The position numbers were made by a program, and so were the translations under genes. Below the pieces are notes generated by a model. The model was not told the origin of the DNA, made no database searches, and was given only the letters and a program-made list of their open reading frames with translations. Source: Candidatus Daviesbacteria bacterium RIFCSPLOWO2_02_FULL_41_8 (lineage in GTDB: Bacteria > Patescibacteriota > Microgenomatia > Daviesbacterales > UBA10151). From it: a stretch of 11,929 nt of DNA. The DNA is taken from contig MFDZ01000066.1 of the NCBI GenBank assembly GCA_001777455.1, positions 1 through 11,929 on the forward strand, in the 5' to 3' direction. Position 1 is the stretch's first letter. Each line of letters starts with the position of its first letter. This document shows, piece by piece, positions 1,491 through 10,017 of this stretch.

Positions 1491-2606
1491 ATGATAAAAA
1501 CATTAAAAGCATTAATTAGCATACCTTCTTACTCCGGTCATGAGCAGGAGATACAAAAATGTATAAAAGATTATCTAGCATCTTCAGGGGTAGAATCTTT
1601 TTTTCAGGACGATAATCTCGTTGTCCATCTACGGGGCGAAAACCAAACCAGAGCTTTTATCTTTAACGGTCATGTTGATGTAGTAGACATCGGTGATGCT
1701 GAGAAGTGGAAACATAGTCCATGGGGTAGCGAAATAGAAGATGGCAAAATCTACGGCAGAGGTGCATCTGACATGAAAAGTGGCATTGCAACAATGATAG
1801 AAACCGCAAAATCCCTGGCATCGAGAGATAAAATACCCACAGATGTATGGTTTACATTTGTGGTAAAAGAGGAAACAGATGGCCAAGGAACAAAACAATT
1901 TGCAGAATGGTTCAAATCAAAAGGTTATTTAAACCAATACAAAGAGCTAGCTGCTATTTTTGCAGAACCTACTAACCTTGACACTGTCCAATATGGACAC
2001 CGTGGAAACTTTTTTATTCAGGCAGAAATAACCGGCATATCCGGTCATTCTTCCAGACCATTAGCCCTTCAGCCTCATGTAATCCTACAATTTAATGACT
2101 TTGTTAACGTTTTAACAAGACAAAATTCAATATGGCAAAAAAAGTTTAGCGAATCAGATTTTATGCCACCTGCTATTACCCCAACTTCAATTGAGGCTAA
2201 ATCAGAATCTCCAAATAAAACAGCAGATTATTGTCGGGCTAGCTTTGATTTACGGACGATTCCAGGATATCACCAAGAAGCGTTCGACAAAGTTCAGGCA
2301 TTGGCAGATGAAAAAGGAATAAAACTGTCATTTCTCCATGATCCATCCCCCATTGGATATACCAAACCGGATGCAAAAATTGTCAAGGTACTCCAAAAGG
2401 TAGTACCCGGAATAAAAACAGCCATAAACGATGCTTCAAACGATTTGGGATTCTTTACTAATATAGGAATCGAGGGTGTTGTTTTTGGACCGGGAGATAT
2501 GTCACAGGCTCACAGAACTGATGAATACGCAGATATTGATAAAATTACTGCCGCGCCAGCTATCTTTGAAACAATCTATTTTGCCTGGGCAGAAGATAAA
2601 AAATAA
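1491..2606 (+). CDS. M20-family metallo-deacylase (ArgE/DapE-like), possibly N-acylcitrulline or N-acylornithine deacylase
   Basis: M20 amidohydrolases use two zinc ions to cleave an N-acyl amide. The 371-residue protein has the full ligand set: GHVDVV (H61, D63), GRGASDMKSG (D94, bridging), VKEETDG (E127 general base, E128), FAEPT (E159) and AHRTDEY near the C-terminus (H341). The lid/dimerisation domain is inserted around SGHSSRP (H186). Length and motifs fit ArgE, DapE and related desuccinylases, and the sequence alone does not choose between them. The N-acylornithine carbamoyltransferase encoded nearby needs a later deacylation step, which this enzyme could supply by releasing citrulline. 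It is on the opposite strand from that operon. Start is the only ATG giving the complete N-terminal IPSYSGHE helix; no Shine-Dalgarno is visible. Confidence 0.8.
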   Translation: MIKTLKALISIPSYSGHEQEIQKCIKDYLASSGVESFFQDDNLVVHLRGENQTRAFIFNGHVDVVDIGDAEKWKHSPWGSEIEDGKIYGRGASDMKSGIATMIETAKSLASRDKIPTDVWFTFVVKEETDGQGTKQFAEWFKSKGYLNQYKELAAIFAEPTNLDTVQYGHRGNFFIQAEITGISGHSSRPLALQPHVILQFNDFVNVLTRQNSIWQKKFSESDFMPPAITPTSIEAKSESPNKTADYCRASFDLRTIPGYHQEAFDKVQALADEKGIKLSFLHDPSPIGYTKPDAKIVKVLQKVVPGIKTAINDASNDLGFFTNIGIEGVVFGPGDMSQAHRTDEYADIDKITAAPAIFETIYFAWAEDKK

Positions 2607-2652: not shown

Positions 2653-3159
2653 ATGGCTGAGCGTATTCTTTTAATAGGTGATACAACAGGTATAAATAAT
2701 CAGGAGTTTTGTTCCTTCGTAAAAACAGTTGGTTGTTCGTACGGGGGAAGCTTCCCCAGTCATAAAGAAGGCCTTCCTGATGCAACAATCAGAGAAGAAA
2801 CATGCAATTTATTAGCTGAGGCCGGAATATTAGATCCTTCTCCCCTCGTCGTATGCGGCTCAGATCAGGAAAGAGCAGCGCAGATTTTGCAAATTTGCAG
2901 ACTGCGCAACGAACAAAATCAAGATGGCGAAGGAGAACTATATGTGGTTATAGACCATGATCCAGTTTCCCTTGCAGCAGCTGTGAAATCTGTTGCCAGA
3001 AATGGTAACGGTTGCCCATCAGCAACCTCACGCATAACCATGATCAAATTAGGTGCAGAGTACGGATATGATCATATAGATCCGGAAACTGGACTACGGC
3101 TTAATGCTCTCCCCCGTCCACTCCATCCTTTCCCTACACATCCTGATCCAGCCACATAA
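2653..3159 (+). CDS. Hypothetical soluble protein, 168 residues
   Basis: I do not recognise this protein. It has a continuous reading frame with ordinary codon use for the region, no signal peptide and no membrane segment. The N-terminus (AERILLIGDTTGIN) looks like a beta strand followed by a glycine/threonine turn, and two further strand-like segments occur at SPLVVCGS and GELYVVIDHDP, suggesting an alternating alpha/beta fold. Cysteines are numerous (five, about residues 21, 28, 51, 68 and 82, plus one near 120). The C-terminus is proline-rich (NALPRPLHPFPTHPDP) and probably unstructured. There is no Shine-Dalgarno before the ATG. It sits between the M20 deacylase and the separately promoted CtlX gene, so co-transcription with M20 is possible. 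Confidence 0.55.
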   Translation: MAERILLIGDTTGINNQEFCSFVKTVGCSYGGSFPSHKEGLPDATIREETCNLLAEAGILDPSPLVVCGSDQERAAQILQICRLRNEQNQDGEGELYVVIDHDPVSLAAAVKSVARNGNGCPSATSRITMIKLGAEYGYDHIDPETGLRLNALPRPLHPFPTHPDPAT

Positions 3160-3248: not shown

Positions 3249-4226
3249 ATGGCCATAGCAGAAATGCCTTTATCAACTAGACTCGCTCAACTTACAGACA
3301 CTGTCTTGATGATCAGTCCTGACAGTTTTGGCTTTAATGACCAAACAGCCTCAACTAACGCCTTTCAAAATAATCTGCCTGCAGATTCCAAAGATAAACC
3401 CCGAAACAAAGCTCTCTCGGAGTTTCATGATTCAGTTGATTTATTACGCAGAAACGGAATTAGAGTCGCAATATGCCCCAGCAAGACTAATGTAGCTACT
3501 CTTGATGCAGTCTTTCCCAATAACTGGATCTCGTTTCATAACGAAGTGAAAGGTATCAATACCGTCTTATATCCTATGCTTGCTCCTAACAGAAGAGTTG
3601 AGAGACAATTGGATGCTGTTGAACAAACTCTGGGAATAACAATCGATCCGTCAACTGTGCTGGACTTAACTCACTATGAAAAATTAGGGCATTTTCTTGA
3701 AGGTACCGGAAGTTTAATATTCGACCGGAAAAGAAAAGTTGTTTTTGCGCATGAATCAGCCAGGACTTCTTTCCGGGTTTTAGATGATTTTTGCGACCAA
3801 ACAGGATACCGGCCGGTTAAATTTCACGCACAGGACGAAGGCGGAAAACCTATCTATCACACTAATGTAGTAATGAGTATCGGAGAAGGTTTTTCTGTTG
3901 TCTGTCTGGAGGCAGTACAGGATAGACGGGAAAGATCCGCAGTCAAAGGTGCGTTATCAGAACTGGATTTGGAAATAATTAACATTACCCTGGACCAATT
4001 ACACGCTTTCTGTGGAAATATATTAGAAGTTCAATCTGTTTCAAAAGAGAATAAAATTATTATGTCCATTATAGCCTTTGGTGCTTTTACCGAAGACCAG
4101 CGGAAAAAATTGATGAGCTATGGCGACATCATTCTCTTCAATATCCCTACCATTGAAACCATTGGCGGAGGCAGTGCCCGTTGCATGCTAGCTGAAGTAT
4201 TTCATAAAGAAGAACAAACTAAATGA
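3249..4226 (+). CDS. CtlX-like citrulline/guanidino hydrolase (amidinotransferase superfamily)
   Basis: A 325-residue member of the guanidino-group modifying enzyme superfamily (arginine deiminase, DDAH, agmatine deiminase), closest in motif layout to CtlX/citrulline ureidase proteins. Visible motifs are DAVFPNNWISF (86-96, substrate-binding acid), FLEGTGSLIFDR (149-160, the E-G-T element), YHTNVVMS (His204 of the catalytic pair) and the nucleophile Cys312 in GGGSARCMLAEVF. All catalytic elements are intact. CtlX-type enzymes remove the ureido group of citrulline to give ornithine; dimethylarginine or another guanidino substrate is possible. It has its own promoter and Shine-Dalgarno, and its TGA overlaps the ATG of the next gene (ATGA), so the two are co-translated. 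A citrulline-consuming enzyme facing an arginine biosynthetic operon suggests recycling or a different substrate. Confidence 0.75.
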   Translation: MAIAEMPLSTRLAQLTDTVLMISPDSFGFNDQTASTNAFQNNLPADSKDKPRNKALSEFHDSVDLLRRNGIRVAICPSKTNVATLDAVFPNNWISFHNEVKGINTVLYPMLAPNRRVERQLDAVEQTLGITIDPSTVLDLTHYEKLGHFLEGTGSLIFDRKRKVVFAHESARTSFRVLDDFCDQTGYRPVKFHAQDEGGKPIYHTNVVMSIGEGFSVVCLEAVQDRRERSAVKGALSELDLEIINITLDQLHAFCGNILEVQSVSKENKIIMSIIAFGAFTEDQRKKLMSYGDIILFNIPTIETIGGGSARCMLAEVFHKEEQTK

Positions 4227-5230
4227 CATCCGGAAAAAGGCAGATCAACAAATCAACACCAAATACGTTTTATACTCCAACGGAGCTCCGCTTGAAATTA
4301 GGGAATAAAAAGTGGGTTATGGGTTACAACAGAATTATTGCGGTGGTAGATCCTGTTTCTCAAAAAGTGATGTATATAGAAGATTATGGTCCTCGAAACG
4401 GTTTTTTTATCGAAGGATGGAGAGCTTTGCACTTCCCCTTAACCAGCTCAATTGTAGAAAAAAGCTATCGGGAAGGAGGTATTACTATTTACATCATCAA
4501 ACAAGGAAAGGCTAAATTAAACTTGCTGCCATCTTTCGCTCCTATCGGGATTGAAGAATGTAAAGTTATTAATAATAAAGTGTCAATAACCTTTGCCGGT
4601 TTTGGTGGCGGTGGCGTCAGTGCTTCATTTTCAAGAGGTATGACAGAGGGTGTTGAAAAAGTCCAGGTGATACAACAAGGGGGCGGAAACAAATTAGGTA
4701 TAGGAAAAATATTCCTACCGGCAAAAAAGATAATCCTGATTGGTGTAGATGATACGGATAACGAAAACGAGGGTGCAACTTACGCTTTAGCACATAATAT
4801 TGCCACAGATATTGCCGGCAAATTAAACGTGTTTTATGCTACACACAACAATATACAGCTTTTCCCATACAATCCTTACAAAACAAAAAACTGCATGGCT
4901 ACAGTGGTTAGCTTTATCTACGATCATGATACCCAAGAAGAAGAAATTGTAAAAGAATTTGCAAAGTTACTTAAAAAGCATTCGGTTAGCAATCAAGCAG
5001 GTATGGCCACTTTTAAAGGATTTTCTTTGCCGAGACAATTAATTGATTTTAGTACAAGCATCAAGTTTCATATGCTGCACGATATGGATGAATTAAAAAA
5101 AGTATGTAATCAAACTGGAGTTAAGTTATATCCAATTACCGGCGAAAAGGGATTGATAGGGGCAGCGGCAGCATTAGGTTTTTTTGACAGACCTGATTTT
5201 GGGGCAAAATTACCTAACCAATGTTGCTAG
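4223..5230 (+). CDS. Protein with C-terminal TiaS-like DDTD domain (possible methanogenesis-marker-11-type relative)
   Basis: A 335-residue soluble protein in two parts. Residues 1-165 form an N-terminal domain of unknown type that ends in a glycine-rich stretch (FAGFGGGGVSASFSRG, 125-139). From about 170 comes ILIGVDDTDNENEGATYALAHNIA, with the DDTD motif (176-179) found in the kinase-like domain of archaeal TiaS, which couples agmatine to tRNA-Ile2 C34. The EGATYALA continuation resembles what I recall of methanogenesis marker protein 11; this cannot be verified here. None of the TiaS OB-fold or zinc-ribbon parts are present. Start overlaps the CtlX stop (ATGA), so it is translationally coupled to a guanidino-modifying enzyme. 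Its stop shares the palindrome CTAG with argH. I do not assign a function. Confidence 0.6.
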   Translation: MTSGKRQINKSTPNTFYTPTELRLKLGNKKWVMGYNRIIAVVDPVSQKVMYIEDYGPRNGFFIEGWRALHFPLTSSIVEKSYREGGITIYIIKQGKAKLNLLPSFAPIGIEECKVINNKVSITFAGFGGGGVSASFSRGMTEGVEKVQVIQQGGGNKLGIGKIFLPAKKIILIGVDDTDNENEGATYALAHNIATDIAGKLNVFYATHNNIQLFPYNPYKTKNCMATVVSFIYDHDTQEEEIVKEFAKLLKKHSVSNQAGMATFKGFSLPRQLIDFSTSIKFHMLHDMDELKKVCNQTGVKLYPITGEKGLIGAAAALGFFDRPDFGAKLPNQCC

Positions 5231-6711
5231 GAAATAACTTCTTTAACCAGCCTATCTGTTTCCTGGCTGGCGTTTTTAATGATGGTTTGTTTTTGTTGAA
5301 TCCGGGATAATTGTTTTCCAATATTCTTACCGGCTTCATCCAATAGCTTATTCATAACGGTCGGACTGCTCCCCCCCACATTATTTCTTTTGGCAATAAC
5401 TAACTTGGGATCCAGCGCCTGAGCGATTTCTTCATCAGAGACCTCGATCTTTAAATCCAAATCATCAGCCGCTTGCATAATTTCCGTCGCAGTAATCCGA
5501 TCGAGCGGTTTTCCCTTTTCAATGGCTTTATCAACTATCTGACCGATAATTTTATAAACTTGTCTGTATCCGATTTTGGTTTTCTGGGAAATATAATCGG
5601 CCAGATCGGTTGTTAACGAGTAATTTGATACTGCTAAATCAAGCATTCTTTGTTCATTAATCCTTAGGGTGGAAATAACCTTCTGCAATGAACTAACAAC
5701 TGAATTTGTTTTTATTAGTCCAAGATGAATATATTCTTTACTCTCCCTGCCATCCCGATTATAGCCCATTGGTAAGCTTGACAGGGTATTTGCCACAATA
5801 GACCAGAAACCAATCACTTGAGGTGTTGTTGAACGGATAATCTCCAAAATATCTGGGTTTTTCTTCTGTGCCATGACGGATGAACCGGTAATCGGATGCA
5901 TCCTTTGCGACACTTCATCCCCCAACTCCACCATGCCATATTCAAAAGTATTAAATAAAATTAAATCCTCATTCAATTTACTGGCCACCAAACATATTTC
6001 CGAAAGAGCTGCTAAATAACCCAGCTGGGCAAACCCCCGGGAGGAAATAGCATCTTGAGGCATCTCCCAAACCTTAGCAAAACCTAATATTTCGGCAGTA
6101 AATTCCCGGTCAAGCGGCCAAGATGTACCATATGACTCGCAGGCCCCTAAAGGATTCATATCATAAAGATCCAAATAATATTGAACTGTGCCCAAGGTTC
6201 TTAAGAAACCGTTTAGGTATGACAGCGCCCACTGCCCAACTGTGGTGATCTTTCCCGGTTGCATATGGGTATAACCAGGCATAATGGTTTGATTATGAAC
6301 AACAGCTAATTTGAACAGCTCTTCTGCAAGAGACACTACCCCTCCGGCAGCCGATAACATCTGTTCTCTTAGGTACAAAAGCTCAGCAACCATCACCTGA
6401 TCATTTCGGCTTCGACCGGTATGGACACTGTGAGCAGCTTCCCCTGCCCTTTTCACTAACTCAGCCTCTAAAGTCAACTGAGCACCCTTTTCCGGATCAA
6501 TTCTAAATTTATCTTCTTGTATTTCTTTTTTTATCTCGGTTAAGGCCTTCAGACAAACTTTAGCTTGGCCCTTATCAATAATCCCTGCTTTAAATAGCAT
6601 AAGAACATGCACTGTTGTCCCCCAAATATCAAATGGAAAAATTTCCATATCCAAGTTCATTTGTTGTTGGGAAACGATAAATGACGCTGATTGTAATCTC
6701 GGTTTATCCAT
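5227..6711 (-). CDS. argH: Argininosuccinate lyase (divergent)
   Basis: Splits argininosuccinate into arginine and fumarate, the last step of arginine synthesis. The 494-residue protein has the fumarase/ASL superfamily hallmarks: LDMEIFPFDIWGTTVH near the N-terminus, HTGRSRNDQ (97-105), GYTHMQPG with the catalytic-site His149, SYGTSWPLDREF, and the signature loop TGSSVMAQKKNPD with serine 278. It is some 35 residues longer than typical ArgH. Two changes stand out: the loop has A where most ASLs have P (SSxMPxKxNP), and the N-terminal GS before the conserved His is GTT. I chose the ATG at 6711 because AGGTGA (6722-6717) lies 5 nt upstream; the GTG at 6720 is part of that ribosome binding site. 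It overlaps the end of the carbamoyltransferase by 8 nt. Confidence 0.9.
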   Translation of the reverse strand: MDKPRLQSASFIVSQQQMNLDMEIFPFDIWGTTVHVLMLFKAGIIDKGQAKVCLKALTEIKKEIQEDKFRIDPEKGAQLTLEAELVKRAGEAAHSVHTGRSRNDQVMVAELLYLREQMLSAAGGVVSLAEELFKLAVVHNQTIMPGYTHMQPGKITTVGQWALSYLNGFLRTLGTVQYYLDLYDMNPLGACESYGTSWPLDREFTAEILGFAKVWEMPQDAISSRGFAQLGYLAALSEICLVASKLNEDLILFNTFEYGMVELGDEVSQRMHPITGSSVMAQKKNPDILEIIRSTTPQVIGFWSIVANTLSSLPMGYNRDGRESKEYIHLGLIKTNSVVSSLQKVISTLRINEQRMLDLAVSNYSLTTDLADYISQKTKIGYRQVYKIIGQIVDKAIEKGKPLDRITATEIMQAADDLDLKIEVSDEEIAQALDPKLVIAKRNNVGGSSPTVMNKLLDEAGKNIGKQLSRIQQKQTIIKNASQETDRLVKEVIS

Positions 6712-7738
6712 TATTTTCACCTATTAGGTAATCTAATATGGCCATTTGAATCCACATCCTGTTTTCAGCCTGGTCAATCACAATAGAAGAAGGACTGTCC
6801 AGCACTTCGTCCGTGACCTCAACATTTCTCCTGACAGGCAAACAATGCATAAAAAATGCATTATTTGTCAAACCCATCTTTTCCTTATCAACAATCCAGT
6901 GTCTCAGGCCTTCTTTCGCCTTTGTTTCCTTATCCCAGTCACCATAATGCTTAATTGCTCCCCAGCTTTTAGCGCATATAATATCAGCATCTTTAAATGC
7001 ATTCTGTTGCGAATGAACCAGTTTCAAGGAGCCGCCGGCTAGTTTAGCTCTTGCTTTGGCTTTCTCAATAACACCTGCATCAAGATCCCATGCTTCAGGA
7101 TAAGCAACAGTCACATCCATTCCTAAATCGCAGGCTGACATAAATTGTGAATTAGCTGTTGCCATGGGTAATGCTTTCGGGTGATATGCCCAAGTTAAAA
7201 CATATTTTTTGCTTTTAGGATTACTAAATTTTTCCATAATAGTCATGGCGTCCCCCAAACCCTGGCAAGGATGAAAAACATTTGACTCCATATTAATGAC
7301 TGGCACTTTCGCATACTTTGTAAAACTTGTAATCACAGTATCTTTTTTAGCTTCATTCCAGGAAGAAACCTCAACGCTTTTTGGCGCAGTAGTAACAAGT
7401 TCACTCGCACGAACAGCAACAGCATCACTTATCCGTGATACCACCGGTATGGCTTCTTTAACATGTTCAATAGTGCTTTTATCCATAACAACATTCTCCT
7501 CAAATTCAAATGGAAAACCACCGCTACCGGAAGATAAATCCACTGCTAAACCACCCAGTTTATCCATGGCTGCAATAAAAGATAACCTGGTTCGTAAAGA
7601 TGGGTTGAAAAAAAACATACTCAAAATTTTTCCCTTCAGCGTTTCTTTCCAGCCGGACTTTTTCATATCCATAGCTGTCTCAATTATCTTCATCAGCTCT
7701 TGTTGGCTGTAATCAGTAACGTCTAAAAAATGTTTCAT
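6704..7738 (-). CDS. argF': N-acylornithine carbamoyltransferase (AOTCase/SOTCase family)
   Basis: Transfers carbamoyl from carbamoyl phosphate to an N-acylated ornithine, giving N-acylcitrulline. The 344-residue protein has the carbamoyl phosphate loop NPSLRTRLSF (45-54), HPCQ (156-159), KSWGA (257-261) and HCLPVRRN (298-305). The RRN ending and the KYVLTWAYHPKALP segment are typical of acetyl/succinylornithine enzymes, not canonical ArgF. At the specificity position (Glu92 in Xanthomonas AOTCase, Pro90 in Bacteroides SOTCase) it has Ile90, in STIEHVKEA. The carboxylated Lys302 of AOTCase is Glu307 here. Published swap mutants at residue 92 suggest that a non-acidic residue favours succinyl over acetyl, so a succinyl-type or other acyl substrate is inferred. 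AAGGA (7748-7744) supports the start; the gene begins 1 nt after the upstream stop. Confidence 0.88.
   Translation of the reverse strand: MKHFLDVTDYSQQELMKIIETAMDMKKSGWKETLKGKILSMFFFNPSLRTRLSFIAAMDKLGGLAVDLSSGSGGFPFEFEENVVMDKSTIEHVKEAIPVVSRISDAVAVRASELVTTAPKSVEVSSWNEAKKDTVITSFTKYAKVPVINMESNVFHPCQGLGDAMTIMEKFSNPKSKKYVLTWAYHPKALPMATANSQFMSACDLGMDVTVAYPEAWDLDAGVIEKAKARAKLAGGSLKLVHSQQNAFKDADIICAKSWGAIKHYGDWDKETKAKEGLRHWIVDKEKMGLTNNAFFMHCLPVRRNVEVTDEVLDSPSSIVIDQAENRMWIQMAILDYLIGENNG
6717..6722 (-). promoter_or_regulatory. Shine-Dalgarno that decides the argH start
   Basis: AGGTGA precedes the ATG at 6711 by 5 nt and overlaps the upstream in-frame GTG at 6720, so that GTG is unlikely to be the start. 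Confidence 0.6.
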
Positions 7739-7739
7739 T

Positions 7740-8783
7740 TTAATCCTTTTTAGAAAAAACCTTTCTATTAATTGCCGTTATAGTTTTGTTAATTTCACGC
7801 CGGTTACTCTCAGCCTCAAGTTGAAAATATTTTTTAATCAATGCTGTTCCCAGTGAACTATTGGCAATAGGGCCAGTAACCAAATCAATTTCCATCCCGC
7901 ACTCTTTCTTAAGTAGTTCCTTGGCTCCGTAAACTCCGGTAAAATCATTAGCTGCTAAAACTATAAATGATAATTGTTTACTTATTGGTTTATGTTTGAG
8001 AATATCAAGTACATGATATTCTCCGATAATACCTTCGCCAAATTCCATCAGAATTAAATCTGGATTAGCTGACTTCGCGTGATCAATCAAATTTATTGTG
8101 GACTCAATCACCTGTTTAACATTACCATTACATGTTGAAGGTAAACCCATATCTGTAAAGTCCAAGACAAACTCTGTTCCGTTATCAATCAGTCTATAAG
8201 GATCTTGTTGGTAACTCACCCCCGTAGGCTTTATCGCCACTACCTTTTTCTTATGCTGTTTAAAATAATGGGCTATTTTACACGCCATAATTGTTTTTCC
8301 GGAATCCATTCTGGTAGCTAATAAACAAATGATTGGGACTTTTCGGGAGATAGGTTCAATTTTTGGCAACATATAGTTTTTCAAATTTAATGATTGACCT
8401 TTTTCGCCTGTGATTACTCCCAAAACCTTAACTTTCATTGGTTTGCCCCAGGCTTCATAAACACCGGAGATTTCTCCGATAACCCCGCTTTCACACAATA
8501 GGTACAACTGATCGCCTACCTTTACTTGTTTAGGAATCACTCCGGCAAATTCCACCGGCGCTTTTCTGTAACCTAATACTCCGGCAAAAATATCTCCTTT
8601 CAGTACTATCCCTAAACGGCCACCCACAAATTCAAATACGTCCTTTTTGCCGGAATTTTCTTCTGCCTGAACTACTATCAGCGCTCCTTCTTCGGCAGGT
8701 ATCTGATTATCAATCCATACCTCATTTGGTAGATTAACGTTTCTGAAAACTGAAGGAATTTTATCAAGCTTAATTTTTTTCAT
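7740..8783 (-). CDS. BioD-like SIMIBI P-loop protein of unknown function in the arginine operon
   Basis: A 347-residue soluble protein with no arginine-pathway family I can name. Residues 1-145 look like beta-rich barrel-type domains (GRLGIVLKGDIFAGVLGYRK; VKVGDQLYLLCESGVIGEISGVYE). Residues 150-305 resemble dethiobiotin synthetase: a P-loop LLATRMDSGKT (154-164, compare BioD GTDTEVGKT), a strand ending VVAIKPTG (181-188, compare KPVASG) and ILMEFGEG (244-251, compare VEGAGG). Similar P-loops occur in cobyrinate diamide synthases and DUF1611 proteins. AGGAG (8795-8791) gives a good start; the gene overlaps argG by 14 nt and ends 1 nt before the carbamoyltransferase, so it is certainly part of the operon. 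BioD carboxylates a diamine using ATP, which is suggestive beside a urea-forming pathway, but this is speculation. Confidence 0.75.
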   Translation of the reverse strand: MKKIKLDKIPSVFRNVNLPNEVWIDNQIPAEEGALIVVQAEENSGKKDVFEFVGGRLGIVLKGDIFAGVLGYRKAPVEFAGVIPKQVKVGDQLYLLCESGVIGEISGVYEAWGKPMKVKVLGVITGEKGQSLNLKNYMLPKIEPISRKVPIICLLATRMDSGKTIMACKIAHYFKQHKKKVVAIKPTGVSYQQDPYRLIDNGTEFVLDFTDMGLPSTCNGNVKQVIESTINLIDHAKSANPDLILMEFGEGIIGEYHVLDILKHKPISKQLSFIVLAANDFTGVYGAKELLKKECGMEIDLVTGPIANSSLGTALIKKYFQLEAESNRREINKTITAINRKVFSKKD

Positions 8784-10017
8784 TTGTTCTCTCCTGATCT
8801 ATTTTGGCAGCAAGAACGCTTTGTAATCCATAAATCTTAGAAAATCCTTCTACGTCCACTCCGCCCCACATCATATTTTCTTCTCCATATATTGCAACCT
8901 CAGAATTCATCAAAGAATAAGGGCTTTGACAACCCTCTATTATTATGTTGCCTTTGTAGAGTTTTACTCTAACATCCCCAGTCACATTTTTTTGGCTGCT
9001 ATTAATCAAAGATTCTATATCCCTCATAATCGGGTCAAAGTAGAGTCCTTCGTGCAATAAATTCCCATAAAAATTACCTAACATTTCTTTCCAAAATATC
9101 TGCCATTTTGTTTGTACTAACTTTTCAAGTTCTCTATGAGTTTTAATTAAAATTAAGGCAGCAGGAGCTGCAAAGGCTACTCTCCCCTTTATACCTAAGA
9201 TTGTATCCCCTAAGTGGATATCTTTACCAATTCCAAATTCTCCTCCAATTTTTGTCAAATATTTAAAGATTTCAACTCCCGACATCTTTTTATTATTTAC
9301 AGCAACAGGTAAACCCTCTTTAAACGAAATAATGTATTCCTTAAACTCATTAGGAGTTTTACTTAATGGAGTAACCCCTGGGTAGACTTCCTCAGGAGGA
9401 ACTTCCCATGAGCCTTTTGTCTCTTTTCCGCCAATCGTTACCCCCAACATTCCTGTATTTATAGAATATGGATTTGAATTTGTGGGAAAATCTAAATTGT
9501 ATTGATGTAGTAATCTTAATTCATCCTCTCTTTTTATCCCTAAATCTCTAATAGGCGTCAAGACCTTAATCTCGGGAGCCAAAATCTTAAGTGCTATGTC
9601 AAATCTAATTTGGTCATTGCCTGCACCGGTTGACCCATGAGCGATATATTCAGCTCCTACTTTTTTGGAAATCTTAACCAATTCTTGAGCAATAACCAAT
9701 CTCTCGGTACCGGCACACAGAGGATAAATTCCTCCCCGTAAAACATTGCCTTTGATAATATAGGAAACAAATTGATTATAAAGCTCGACCTTACCATCAA
9801 TAAAATAATGATTTTTGGCACCTAATAGTTTAGCCTTAGCAGCAATCTTATCTATCTCATCCTTACTAAATCCGCCTGTGTCTATTGTAACTGTTGTGAC
9901 TTCGTAACCCTGCTCTTTTAGATAAACCACACAATATGAGGTATCTAAGCCTCCCGAGAAAGCTAAAACTACCTTACTTATTGGTTTTTCTAAAGTATTA
10001 ACTACATCTTTATTCAT
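8770..10017 (-). CDS. argG: Argininosuccinate synthase
   Basis: Joins citrulline and aspartate with ATP to make argininosuccinate. The 415-residue protein has the ATP pyrophosphatase loop AFSGGLDTSY (19-28), EYIAHGSTGAGNDQIRFD (123-140) and PEIKVLTPIRDL, followed by YSINTGMLGVTIGGKET and the SWEVPPEEVYP block. The versions VTIDTGGF, HGSTGAGNDQ and GVTIGGKET match what I recall of Bacteroidetes ArgG more than the common proteobacterial or Bacillus type. It is the first gene of the operon, behind a T-box leader. AGAAGGA (10028-10022) is the ribosome binding site, 4 nt before the ATG. All motifs are intact. Confidence 0.95.
   Translation of the reverse strand: MNKDVVNTLEKPISKVVLAFSGGLDTSYCVVYLKEQGYEVTTVTIDTGGFSKDEIDKIAAKAKLLGAKNHYFIDGKVELYNQFVSYIIKGNVLRGGIYPLCAGTERLVIAQELVKISKKVGAEYIAHGSTGAGNDQIRFDIALKILAPEIKVLTPIRDLGIKREDELRLLHQYNLDFPTNSNPYSINTGMLGVTIGGKETKGSWEVPPEEVYPGVTPLSKTPNEFKEYIISFKEGLPVAVNNKKMSGVEIFKYLTKIGGEFGIGKDIHLGDTILGIKGRVAFAAPAALILIKTHRELEKLVQTKWQIFWKEMLGNFYGNLLHEGLYFDPIMRDIESLINSSQKNVTGDVRVKLYKGNIIIEGCQSPYSLMNSEVAIYGEENMMWGGVDVEGFSKIYGLQSVLAAKIDQERTNEKN

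What the first reader, a model, noticed from the sequence alone, without database searches (positions are those of the whole stretch)
7740..8783. BioD-like ATPase embedded in an arginine operon
A 347-residue protein with a beta-rich N-terminal half and a dethiobiotin-synthetase-like P-loop half sits, translationally coupled, between argG and the acylornithine carbamoyltransferase. No known arginine pathway needs it. BioD uses ATP and CO2 to carboxylate a diamine and close a ureido ring; ornithine is a diamine and citrulline is a ureido compound, so an ATP-dependent carboxylation, amide-forming or acyl-activation step in this pathway is conceivable. The P-loop has alanine where BioD has glycine. 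Seen: motifs and coupling. Inferred: any role.
Basis: partly seen in the sequence, partly recalled or inferred. Interest (0 to 1): 0.72.

Follow-up and report, generated by a model that had tools for sequence, protein, structure and literature searches.

The report
P-loop enzyme for arginine's first step
An unannotated two-domain P-loop protein sits, in many unrelated microbes, exactly where the arginine pathway lacks its first enzyme, so it is probably a new kind of enzyme that caps the amino group of glutamate (or, in this genome, ornithine).

Summary
The gene is real: 347 codons on the minus strand, overlapping argG by 14 nt and ending 1 nt before the acylornithine carbamoyltransferase gene argF'. 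Only its C-terminal half resembles BioD, as a distant P-loop relative; the beta-rich N-terminal half matches no solved fold. It is not an isolated oddity. Of 373 genomes of its class, 9 have argF' over cut-off and all 9 carry X. In Bacteroidota, 28 of 385 genomes have a full-length copy, 28 of 28 as argG-X-argC. Complete operons hold every step of the acylated arginine pathway except the first, N-acylglutamate synthase. ArgJ was found in 0 of 373 class genomes and 0 of 10 other X genomes. Of 29 class genomes with argC over cut-off, 6 have X directly upstream and 21 have the LysX amino-protection enzyme there. X is most likely the amino-capping enzyme, a non-orthologous replacement of ArgA, ArgJ or GNAT synthases. 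argF' residues suggest a succinyl cap. This genome and its complete relative G007 lack argB and argC over cut-off, so their subtype (X1) is predicted to cap ornithine. No activity has been measured; ATP- versus CoA-driven chemistry is undecided.

The parts
7740..8783 (-). gene X (X1 subtype), 347 aa: N-terminal beta domain plus C-terminal P-loop domain; predicted amino-acid N-acylating (amino-capping) enzyme
8343..8783 (-). N-terminal all-beta domain, residues 1-147, with conserved G33, R73, G81, P84, G103; no match to a solved structure
   Evidence: AlphaFold2 pLDDT 90.0; Foldseek best E 0.55; conservation
7743..8342 (-). C-terminal P-loop (SIMIBI/BioD-like) domain, residues 148-347
8292..8318 (-). 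Walker A ATRMDSGKT, residues 156-164
8229..8231 (-). invariant Lys185, aligned with the second lysine of E. coli BioD (Lys37 in usual numbering, number recalled)
8205..8207 (-). Gln193: Arg/Lys in 16 of 16 X2 and X3 rows, Gln in 3 of 3 X1 rows; candidate specificity switch
8770..10017 (-). argG, argininosuccinate synthase
   Evidence: NF001770 and TIGR00032 over cut-off
6704..7738 (-). argF', N-acylornithine carbamoyltransferase with near-succinyl-type diagnostic residues (Ile90, Pro191, Glu307 in its own numbering)
   Evidence: NF003384 406.6 bits over cut-off 288
5227..6720 (-). argH, argininosuccinate lyase
   Evidence: TIGR00838 over cut-off
1491..2606 (+). M20 deacylase of the ArgE/DapE kind, candidate remover of the cap (divergently placed here; inside the arg operon in many relatives)
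   Evidence: TIGR01910 198.7 bits, below its cut-off 217.6
3249..4226 (+). CtlX, citrulline hydrolase, a possible source of ornithine
   Evidence: NF046062 340.6 bits over cut-off 334

Best explanation
X is the amino-capping enzyme of an acylated arginine pathway. It puts an acyl group, most likely succinyl, on the alpha-amino group of the pathway's entry amino acid. X2 proteins (next to argC, argD and argB) should make N-acyl-L-glutamate and so replace ArgA, ArgJ or a GNAT synthase. X1 proteins (this window, G007, G227, G190; next to argF', not argC) should make N-acyl-ornithine for argF', an ornithine-to-arginine shortcut. An M20 enzyme later removes the cap. Shown: operon logic, co-occurrence, a missing first enzyme, the fold, conserved catalytic-type residues. 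Inferred: the reaction, the succinyl group, the Glu/Orn split, and the chemistry. For the chemistry I favour BioD-like activation of a carboxylate by ATP and attack by the amine (about 0.55) over transfer from acyl-CoA (about 0.35).
For: (1) Operons with argG, X, argC, argD, argF', argB, M20 and argH together, hence all steps but N-acylglutamate synthase: in order argG-X-argC-argD-argF'-argB-M20-argH in 12 of 20 extended Bacteroidota stretches, a Bacteroidetes MAG (L041), a Balneolales MAG (L044) and a proteobacterium (L035); same genes in other order in CPR G071, G103, G119, G135 and an Aenigmarchaeota MAG. (2) Slot: argC passes its cut-off in 29 of 373 class genomes: in 6 X2 is directly upstream, in 21 LysX is (LysW seen in 20 of 21), in 2 (G323, G337) neither. 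LysX does amino protection by another chemistry. LysW was not found in any of 41 X stretches. (3) Co-occurrence: argF' over cut-off in 9 of 373, all 9 with X1 or X2; X1/X2 in 10 of 373; Fisher p 3e-17, ignoring kinship. (4) Bacteroidota: 28 of 385 have full-length X, 28 of 28 as argG-X-argC. (5) ArgJ 0 of 373 and 0 of 10 (controls ring in 10 of 14); ArgA over cut-off 0 of 18 (a weak test: 1 of 14 controls passes). (6) argF' of 38 X-bearing places: residue 92 never Glu, residue 185 Pro in 38, residue 302 Val/Glu/Ile in 37: close to the published succinyl-type rule (PMC4581275 passages). (7) No argB or argC over cut-off in G000 or in G007, listed as 100% complete. (8) X1 is a clade, support 100/100, with Arg/Lys193 changed to Gln. 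(9) Three of four CPR X3 outgroup loci and a Priestia plasmid also have an M20 enzyme beside or near X. (10) Lys163, Lys185, Asp194 and Glu247 are conserved in 19 of 19.
Against: No biochemical or genetic data for any X protein. X has no acyltransferase fold, and its N-domain gives no hint of CoA or substrate. GNATs exist: the ArgA model hits an unlinked GNAT domain in G000 (58 bits) and G007 (49.5 bits), weakly in G378, and a GNAT lies beside argH in G031; any of these could be the synthase. The GNAT synthase of Bacteroides (ArgA2/BT3761) was not searched for genome-wide in the X genomes. One X relative (Planctomycetota, L040) has no arg genes within 8 kb, and X3 locus L053 shows no M20. 11 of 38 argF' have Ile, Thr or Met at residue 92, outside the published list A/S/P/V/Q, the window among them. 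X1 gains acidic residues (78, 98, 110) but basic ones too (47, 114, 141, 158, 169, 175, 179, 237), so charge does not decide the substrate. X1 genomes G227 and G190 do carry LysW-type argC clusters on other contigs. The source of ornithine is unknown. Co-occurrence inside one mobile operon overstates independence. One of the 28 Bacteroidota copies (G383) has an in-frame stop.
Confidence: 0.66

Rival explanations
1. The synthase is an unlinked GNAT, as in some other bacteria, and X is an accessory or regulatory P-loop NTPase of the arginine operon (an arginine or energy sensor, assembly factor or metallochaperone-like ATPase).
For: SIMIBI NTPases such as FtsY, ParA/FleN and HypB are the nearest solved folds; GNATs with ArgA-like domains occur unlinked in G000 and G007, and one lies beside argH in G031.
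Against: The two unlinked GNATs lie in different neighbourhoods. In the six CPR X2 genomes the ArgA model hit only kinase (argB) domains in five and nothing in G326, though that model is a weak probe for other GNAT synthases. X sits in the LysX slot and inside otherwise complete operons of several phyla. Invariant Lys185 matches BioD, which phosphorylates a carboxyl group (mechanism recalled).
Confidence: 0.18
2. X transfers the acyl group from acyl-CoA, as the D-glutamate N-acetyltransferase DgcN is said to do (recalled), and the P-loop binds the CoA nucleotide or is regulatory.
For: Weak DUF1611 (PF07755) similarity in 14 of 19 X-family members at E<=1; homologous plasmid proteins are annotated DUF1611. 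Known N-acylglutamate synthases use acyl-CoA (established knowledge). A succinate-CoA-ligase-like gene, below its cut-off, lies near argG in G031.
Against: DUF1611 cut-off not met where scores were shown; that DgcN belongs to DUF1611 is recalled and could not be checked (paper not held). The BioD-type second lysine and acidic residues are conserved.
Confidence: 0.3
3. X is a BioD-like carboxylase or carbamoyl-forming enzyme: it caps the amine with CO2 plus ATP, or makes a ureido or cyclic product.
For: BioD-like P-loop and Lys185; some M20 enzymes hydrolyse N-carbamoyl amino acids (recalled).
Against: argF' carries N-acylornithine carbamoyltransferase signatures; N-carboxy amines are unstable in water (established knowledge).
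Confidence: 0.05
4. X1 in this window also acts on glutamate, or is a vestige of a lost full pathway with no present role.
For: X1 belongs to the same family as X2; G000 is only 84.7% complete; X1 charge changes go both ways.
Against: G007 is listed as 100% complete and has no argB or argC over cut-off, yet X1 is 75% identical there and coupled to argF'.
Confidence: 0.2

Closest known systems
ArgA2 (BT3761, GNAT type), proposed N-succinylglutamate synthase of Bacteroidetes (PMC7311316, PMC9026213)
   Same: Predicted same step, in the same kind of pathway (succinyl-type carbamoyltransferase, M20-like desuccinylase) and in arginine operons, by those papers
   Different: GNAT family by those papers; X is a P-loop protein with an unmatched beta domain and no GNAT or ArgJ hit in the scans
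BioD, dethiobiotin synthetase
   Same: P-loop half: GTxxxxGKT-like Walker A and a second conserved lysine; best BioD structure match shown 3of5_B, TM 0.61 by target length
   Different: Alignable over only 35 columns by profile; extra N-terminal domain; different operon; BioD cut-off not met
DUF1611 proteins (PF07755), said to include DgcN, a D-glutamate N-acetyltransferase (recalled)
   Same: Weak P-loop domain similarity (14 of 19 members, best E 7e-5). Full-length homologs in Rhodobacterales plasmids are annotated DUF1611.
   Different: No protein reached the 25-bit cut-off where scores were shown, those plasmid proteins included; the DUF1611 N-terminal model was not among the families shown
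LysX/ArgX with the LysW carrier
   Same: Occupies the same operon slot just upstream of argC/LysY and protects the same amino group
   Different: ATP-grasp (RimK-like) ligase with a carrier protein; no LysW was found in 41 X stretches

Membership tests
BioD (TIGR00347) | Curated HMM cut-off | tested here: not met
   Window protein not hit at E<=1; 10 of 19 family members hit weakly, best 2.4e-4
BioD (TIGR00347) | Walker A GTxxxxGKT and second lysine | tested here: met
   ATRMDSGKT in the window (Ala for Gly), Lys185 aligned with the BioD lysine
BioD (TIGR00347) | Whole-chain fold match | tested here: not met
   In the 50 matches shown only P-loop proteins; TM 0.40 by query length for 3of5_B
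CbiA P-loop domain (PF01656) | Pfam gathering cut-off 25.4 bits | tested here: not met
   Window 19.2 bits. Two distant relatives do pass: X3 of G026 33.2, Priestia 26.6.
DUF1611 (PF07755) | Pfam gathering cut-off 25 bits | tested here: not met
   Window: no hit at E<=1. Family: best E 7e-5; bit scores shown 13.7-21.
DUF1611 (PF07755) | N-acetyltransferase activity as in DgcN | not testable with these tools
   DgcN paper not held; activity recalled only
ArgJ (PF01960) | Sequence homology | tested here: not met
   No ArgJ hit for the window nor among the families shown for 19 members
ArgA / GNAT N-acylglutamate synthases | Sequence homology to the GNAT fold | tested here: not met
   No GNAT family among the hits shown; fold is P-loop
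N-acylglutamate / N-acylornithine synthase (function) | Acylation of the alpha-amine | not testable with these tools
   Only operon, co-occurrence and slot evidence
Succinyl-type pathway (argF' as SOTCase) | Residues 92 / 185 / 302 (AOTCase numbering) = A,S,P,V,Q / P / V,I,E | tested here: inconclusive
   Window I/P/E: two of three in the list, the third non-Glu. Of 38: residue 92 A23 I7 T3 Q2 S1 M1 V1, so 27 of 38 in the list; 185 P38; 302 V22 E9 I6 K1. Rule from PMC4581275 passages.

The most novel reading that the evidence does not exclude
X is a BioD-type ATP-dependent carboxylate-amine ligase (succinate + amino acid + ATP) that founds an unrecognised class of amino-capping enzymes in arginine biosynthesis and in phosphonate gene clusters. 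Its X1 branch has switched from glutamate to ornithine, giving some CPR bacteria an ornithine-capping shortcut to arginine that needs neither argB, argC nor succinyl-CoA.
Probability: 0.27. Interest if true: 0.85.

Novelty: new variant of a known kind. Interest (0 to 1): 0.72.

Why it matters
Arginine's first step has several known kinds of enzyme (ArgA, ArgJ, GNAT forms, the LysX/LysW route), yet genomes with the other arginine genes but no recognisable first enzyme are reported (PMC9026213 passages: ArgA missing in 228 gut genomes; PMC7311316). X fits such a gap in CPR bacteria, an Aenigmarchaeota MAG, Bacteroidota, a Balneolales MAG and Deltaproteobacteria. If right, it adds a P-loop enzyme to a step done elsewhere by quite different folds, could turn some organisms now scored as arginine auxotrophs into prototrophs, and predicts a glutamate-to-ornithine substrate switch testable with two purified proteins. 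In the listings and passages I saw, no held paper describes the family in this role (ten searches; open-licence library only).

Tried and rejected
BioD membership, DUF1611 membership, a carboxylation role and a chance neighbour were each tested and rejected or lowered (see membership test and rivals). A single-query scan of genome contigs found nothing; the alignment scan found 12 loci. Sequence search of solved structures with the window protein gave only chance-level hits; with the family profile, mostly P-loops of BioD, FtsY and others. DUF1611 was not found (E<=0.001) in 8 X genomes. The second structure job, on the N-terminal domain alone, gave a confident model with no PDB match under E 0.001. 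The ArgA model (TIGR01890) mostly rings on argB kinase domains and passes its cut-off in only 1 of 14 controls, so it says little either way. Naive ORF calling failed to find X in 8 of 20 Bacteroidota stretches; translated search found X in 20 of 20. In one search at most five candidates per genome were scored, so 28 of 385 is a lower bound. The ten more distant Bacteroidota homologs (139-181 bits) were set aside; two were looked at (L113, L114) and show no arg neighbours within 1.5 kb. Below-threshold P-loop-only hits were dropped before counting.

Full report
WHAT IS THERE. The ORF at 7740-8783 is on the minus strand and encodes 347 residues. As called, it overlaps argG by 14 nt and ends 1 nt before the ATG of argF'; argF' overlaps argH by 17 nt. 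argG, argF' (NF003384, 406.6 bits against a cut-off of 288) and argH pass curated cut-offs. The genome, G000, has 989 kb in 70 contigs and is 84.7% complete.

THE PROTEIN. An AlphaFold2 model built on 19 homologs has mean pLDDT 93.1 and pTM 0.91: an all-beta N-terminal domain (about 1-147) and a P-loop alpha/beta domain. In the 50 Foldseek matches shown, only P-loop proteins appear (SRP GTPases, ParA, FleN, HypB, BioD; BioD 3of5_B has TM 0.61 by target and 0.40 by query). The N-terminal domain folded alone (pLDDT 90.0) has no PDB match better than E 0.55. hhalign aligns E. coli BioD with the family over 35 columns only, including the Walker lysine and a second lysine at window Lys185. Lys163, Lys185, Asp194 and Glu247 are identical in 19 of 19 homologs. 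The window protein reaches no Pfam or NCBIfam cut-off. Full-length homologs on Rhodobacterales plasmids are annotated DUF1611 or dethiobiotin synthase; the two profiles match over 305 columns, E 5e-36, yet none of these plasmid proteins passes the DUF1611 cut-off.

DISTRIBUTION AND CONTEXT. In 373 genomes of the class, 14 have a strong match: 4 of type X1 (G000, G007, G227, G190), 6 of type X2 (G031, G071, G103, G119, G135, G326) and 4 of an outgroup X3 (G026, G182, G350, G057). The other 10 of the 24 matching genomes have only short P-loop hits and were dropped. X1 sits in argG-X-argF'-argH; in G190 this is inferred from two contig ends. X2 lies directly upstream of argC in 6 of 6 CPR genomes and in 9 of 10 non-CPR loci (the exception is Planctomycetota L040; the other two of the 12 loci are the G007 and G031 records). 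In the phylum of the Bacteroidetes MAG, 28 of 385 genomes have a full-length X (371-458 bits, one, G383, with an in-frame stop), and 28 of 28 are argG-X-argC. I extended 20 of these 28. All 20 go on with argC, argD, argF' and argB; 14 also show an M20 gene downstream, and 12 of these also argH, within the stretch; the other 6 show neither there.

THE MISSING STEP. argB, argC, argD, argF', M20, argG and argH are seven of the eight steps of the acylated linear pathway; the step without a gene is N-acylation of glutamate. ArgJ (PF01960) is found in 0 of 373 class genomes and 0 of 10 non-CPR X genomes, while 10 of 14 control genomes ring. The ArgA model passes its cut-off in 0 of 18 X genomes, but also in only 1 of 14 controls; its sub-threshold hits are kinase (argB) domains, except GNAT-domain hits in G000 and G007 and, weakly, G378. 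argC passes its cut-off in 29 of 373 class genomes. In 6 the upstream neighbour is X2. In 21 the cluster carries LysX (21 of 21) and LysW (20 of 21; the other runs off its contig). In 2 it lies in another context. LysX and LysW were scored by HMM for one cluster (LysX over cut-off, LysW below it) and by tblastn for the rest. No LysW was found in 41 X stretches; one weak LysX-like hit lies away from X in L122. Thus X2 fills the slot that an amino-protection enzyme fills elsewhere. argF' over cut-off occurs in 9 of 373, and all 9 have X. The tenth X genome, G326, has its contig end inside argC and an argF'-like gene elsewhere at 245.6 bits, below cut-off.

WHICH CAP. A review of transcarbamylases gives residues 92, 185 and 302 as separating acetyl- (Glu, Asn, Lys) from succinyl-type enzymes (A/S/P/V/Q, P, V/I/E) (PMC4581275, passages). 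Mutant structures of the Xanthomonas enzyme in the PDB let me place residue 92. In 38 argF' sequences, the window plus 37 X stretches (the partial copy in L005 left out because L079 holds the same gene), residue 92 is never Glu (A23 I7 T3 Q2 S1 M1 V1), 185 is Pro in 38, and 302 is V22 E9 I6 K1. The window has Ile, Pro, Glu. This favours succinyl, but Ile, Thr and Met at 92 (11 of 38) are outside the published list. The succinylated pathway and a GNAT N-succinylglutamate synthase are described for Bacteroides (PMC7311316 section 7 part 1 and passages; PMC9026213 passages). I take X to be an unrelated solution to the same step.

GLUTAMATE OR ORNITHINE. G000 and G007 have no argC or argB over cut-off, and G007 is listed as 100% complete. 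X1 is a clade with support 100/100. The Arg or Lys at 193 (16 of 16 X2 and X3) is Gln in X1, and Glu appears at 78, 98 and 110; but X1 also gains basic residues at eight positions, so charge alone does not decide. From the missing argB and argC I infer that X1 caps ornithine, which argF' then carbamoylates. CtlX in the window could supply ornithine from citrulline. This is a prediction, not a result. G227 and G190 (X1) also carry a LysW cluster on other contigs, so their ornithine or lysine supply is open.

CHEMISTRY. X keeps the Walker lysine, the second lysine and invariant acidic residues of the kind that BioD and CobB-like enzymes use to phosphorylate a carboxylate or carbamate (roles recalled). 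An ATP-driven ligation of succinate to the amine is therefore my favoured chemistry; acyl-CoA transfer remains a serious alternative. In G031 a succinate-CoA-ligase-like gene (below its cut-off) lies near argG, which would suit a CoA route. X3 relatives lie beside or near M20 deacylases in G026, G182 and G350 (not seen in G057), and in G182, G350 and a Priestia plasmid also near PEP mutase and phosphonopyruvate-decarboxylase-type genes (in G350 named by resemblance, not by HMM). That is consistent with a general cap-and-uncap pair.

LIMITS. No activity data exist. Many of the genomes are MAGs. Co-occurrence within one transferable operon is not independent evidence each time. ArgA2-type GNATs were not searched genome-wide in X genomes. 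The DgcN comparison rests on recall. Statements about print are limited to the ten searches named and to a library of open-licence papers, of which I saw listings, passages and one section part.

Noticed in passing
window 4223-5230 (+): A bacterial (CPR) protein over the cut-off of methanogenesis marker protein 11 (TIGR03280, 280 bits against 255.8), related to the TiaS kinase domain. It overlaps CtlX by 4 nt and is kept beside CtlX in G007 (L007 5208-6236).
   Followed up: no
window 2653-3159 (+): A 168-aa protein with no Pfam or NCBIfam hit, with relatives in G007 and G031 next to the M20 deacylase.
   Followed up: no
L045 5204-6214; G326:C36, G360:C13, G077:C2, G113:C16, G345:C12: A second, divergent carbamoyltransferase group in the class (210-249 bits to NF003384, below cut-off), beside M20 and argS in G227.
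   Followed up: no
L137 (Priestia megaterium plasmid NZ_CP085446.1, 85.4-94.1 kb): Apparent phosphonate gene cluster by its annotation: ornithine carbamoyltransferase, two ATP-grasp proteins, TPP enzyme pair, X homolog, M20, LLM oxidoreductase, PEP-mutase family protein.
   Followed up: partly
L135, L136, L138 (Rhodobacterales plasmids): X homologs followed by an ABC transporter gene in all three, with an alpha/beta hydrolase upstream in two; possibly another cap-and-export cassette.
   Followed up: partly
L005 12879-16499 (G031): A relative of nickel-pincer ornithine cyclodeaminases (below cut-off), a CtlX homolog (60% to the window's) and a further protein that looks by eye like an arginine deiminase, next to the arg genes: possibly an arginine-to-proline route.
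   Followed up: no
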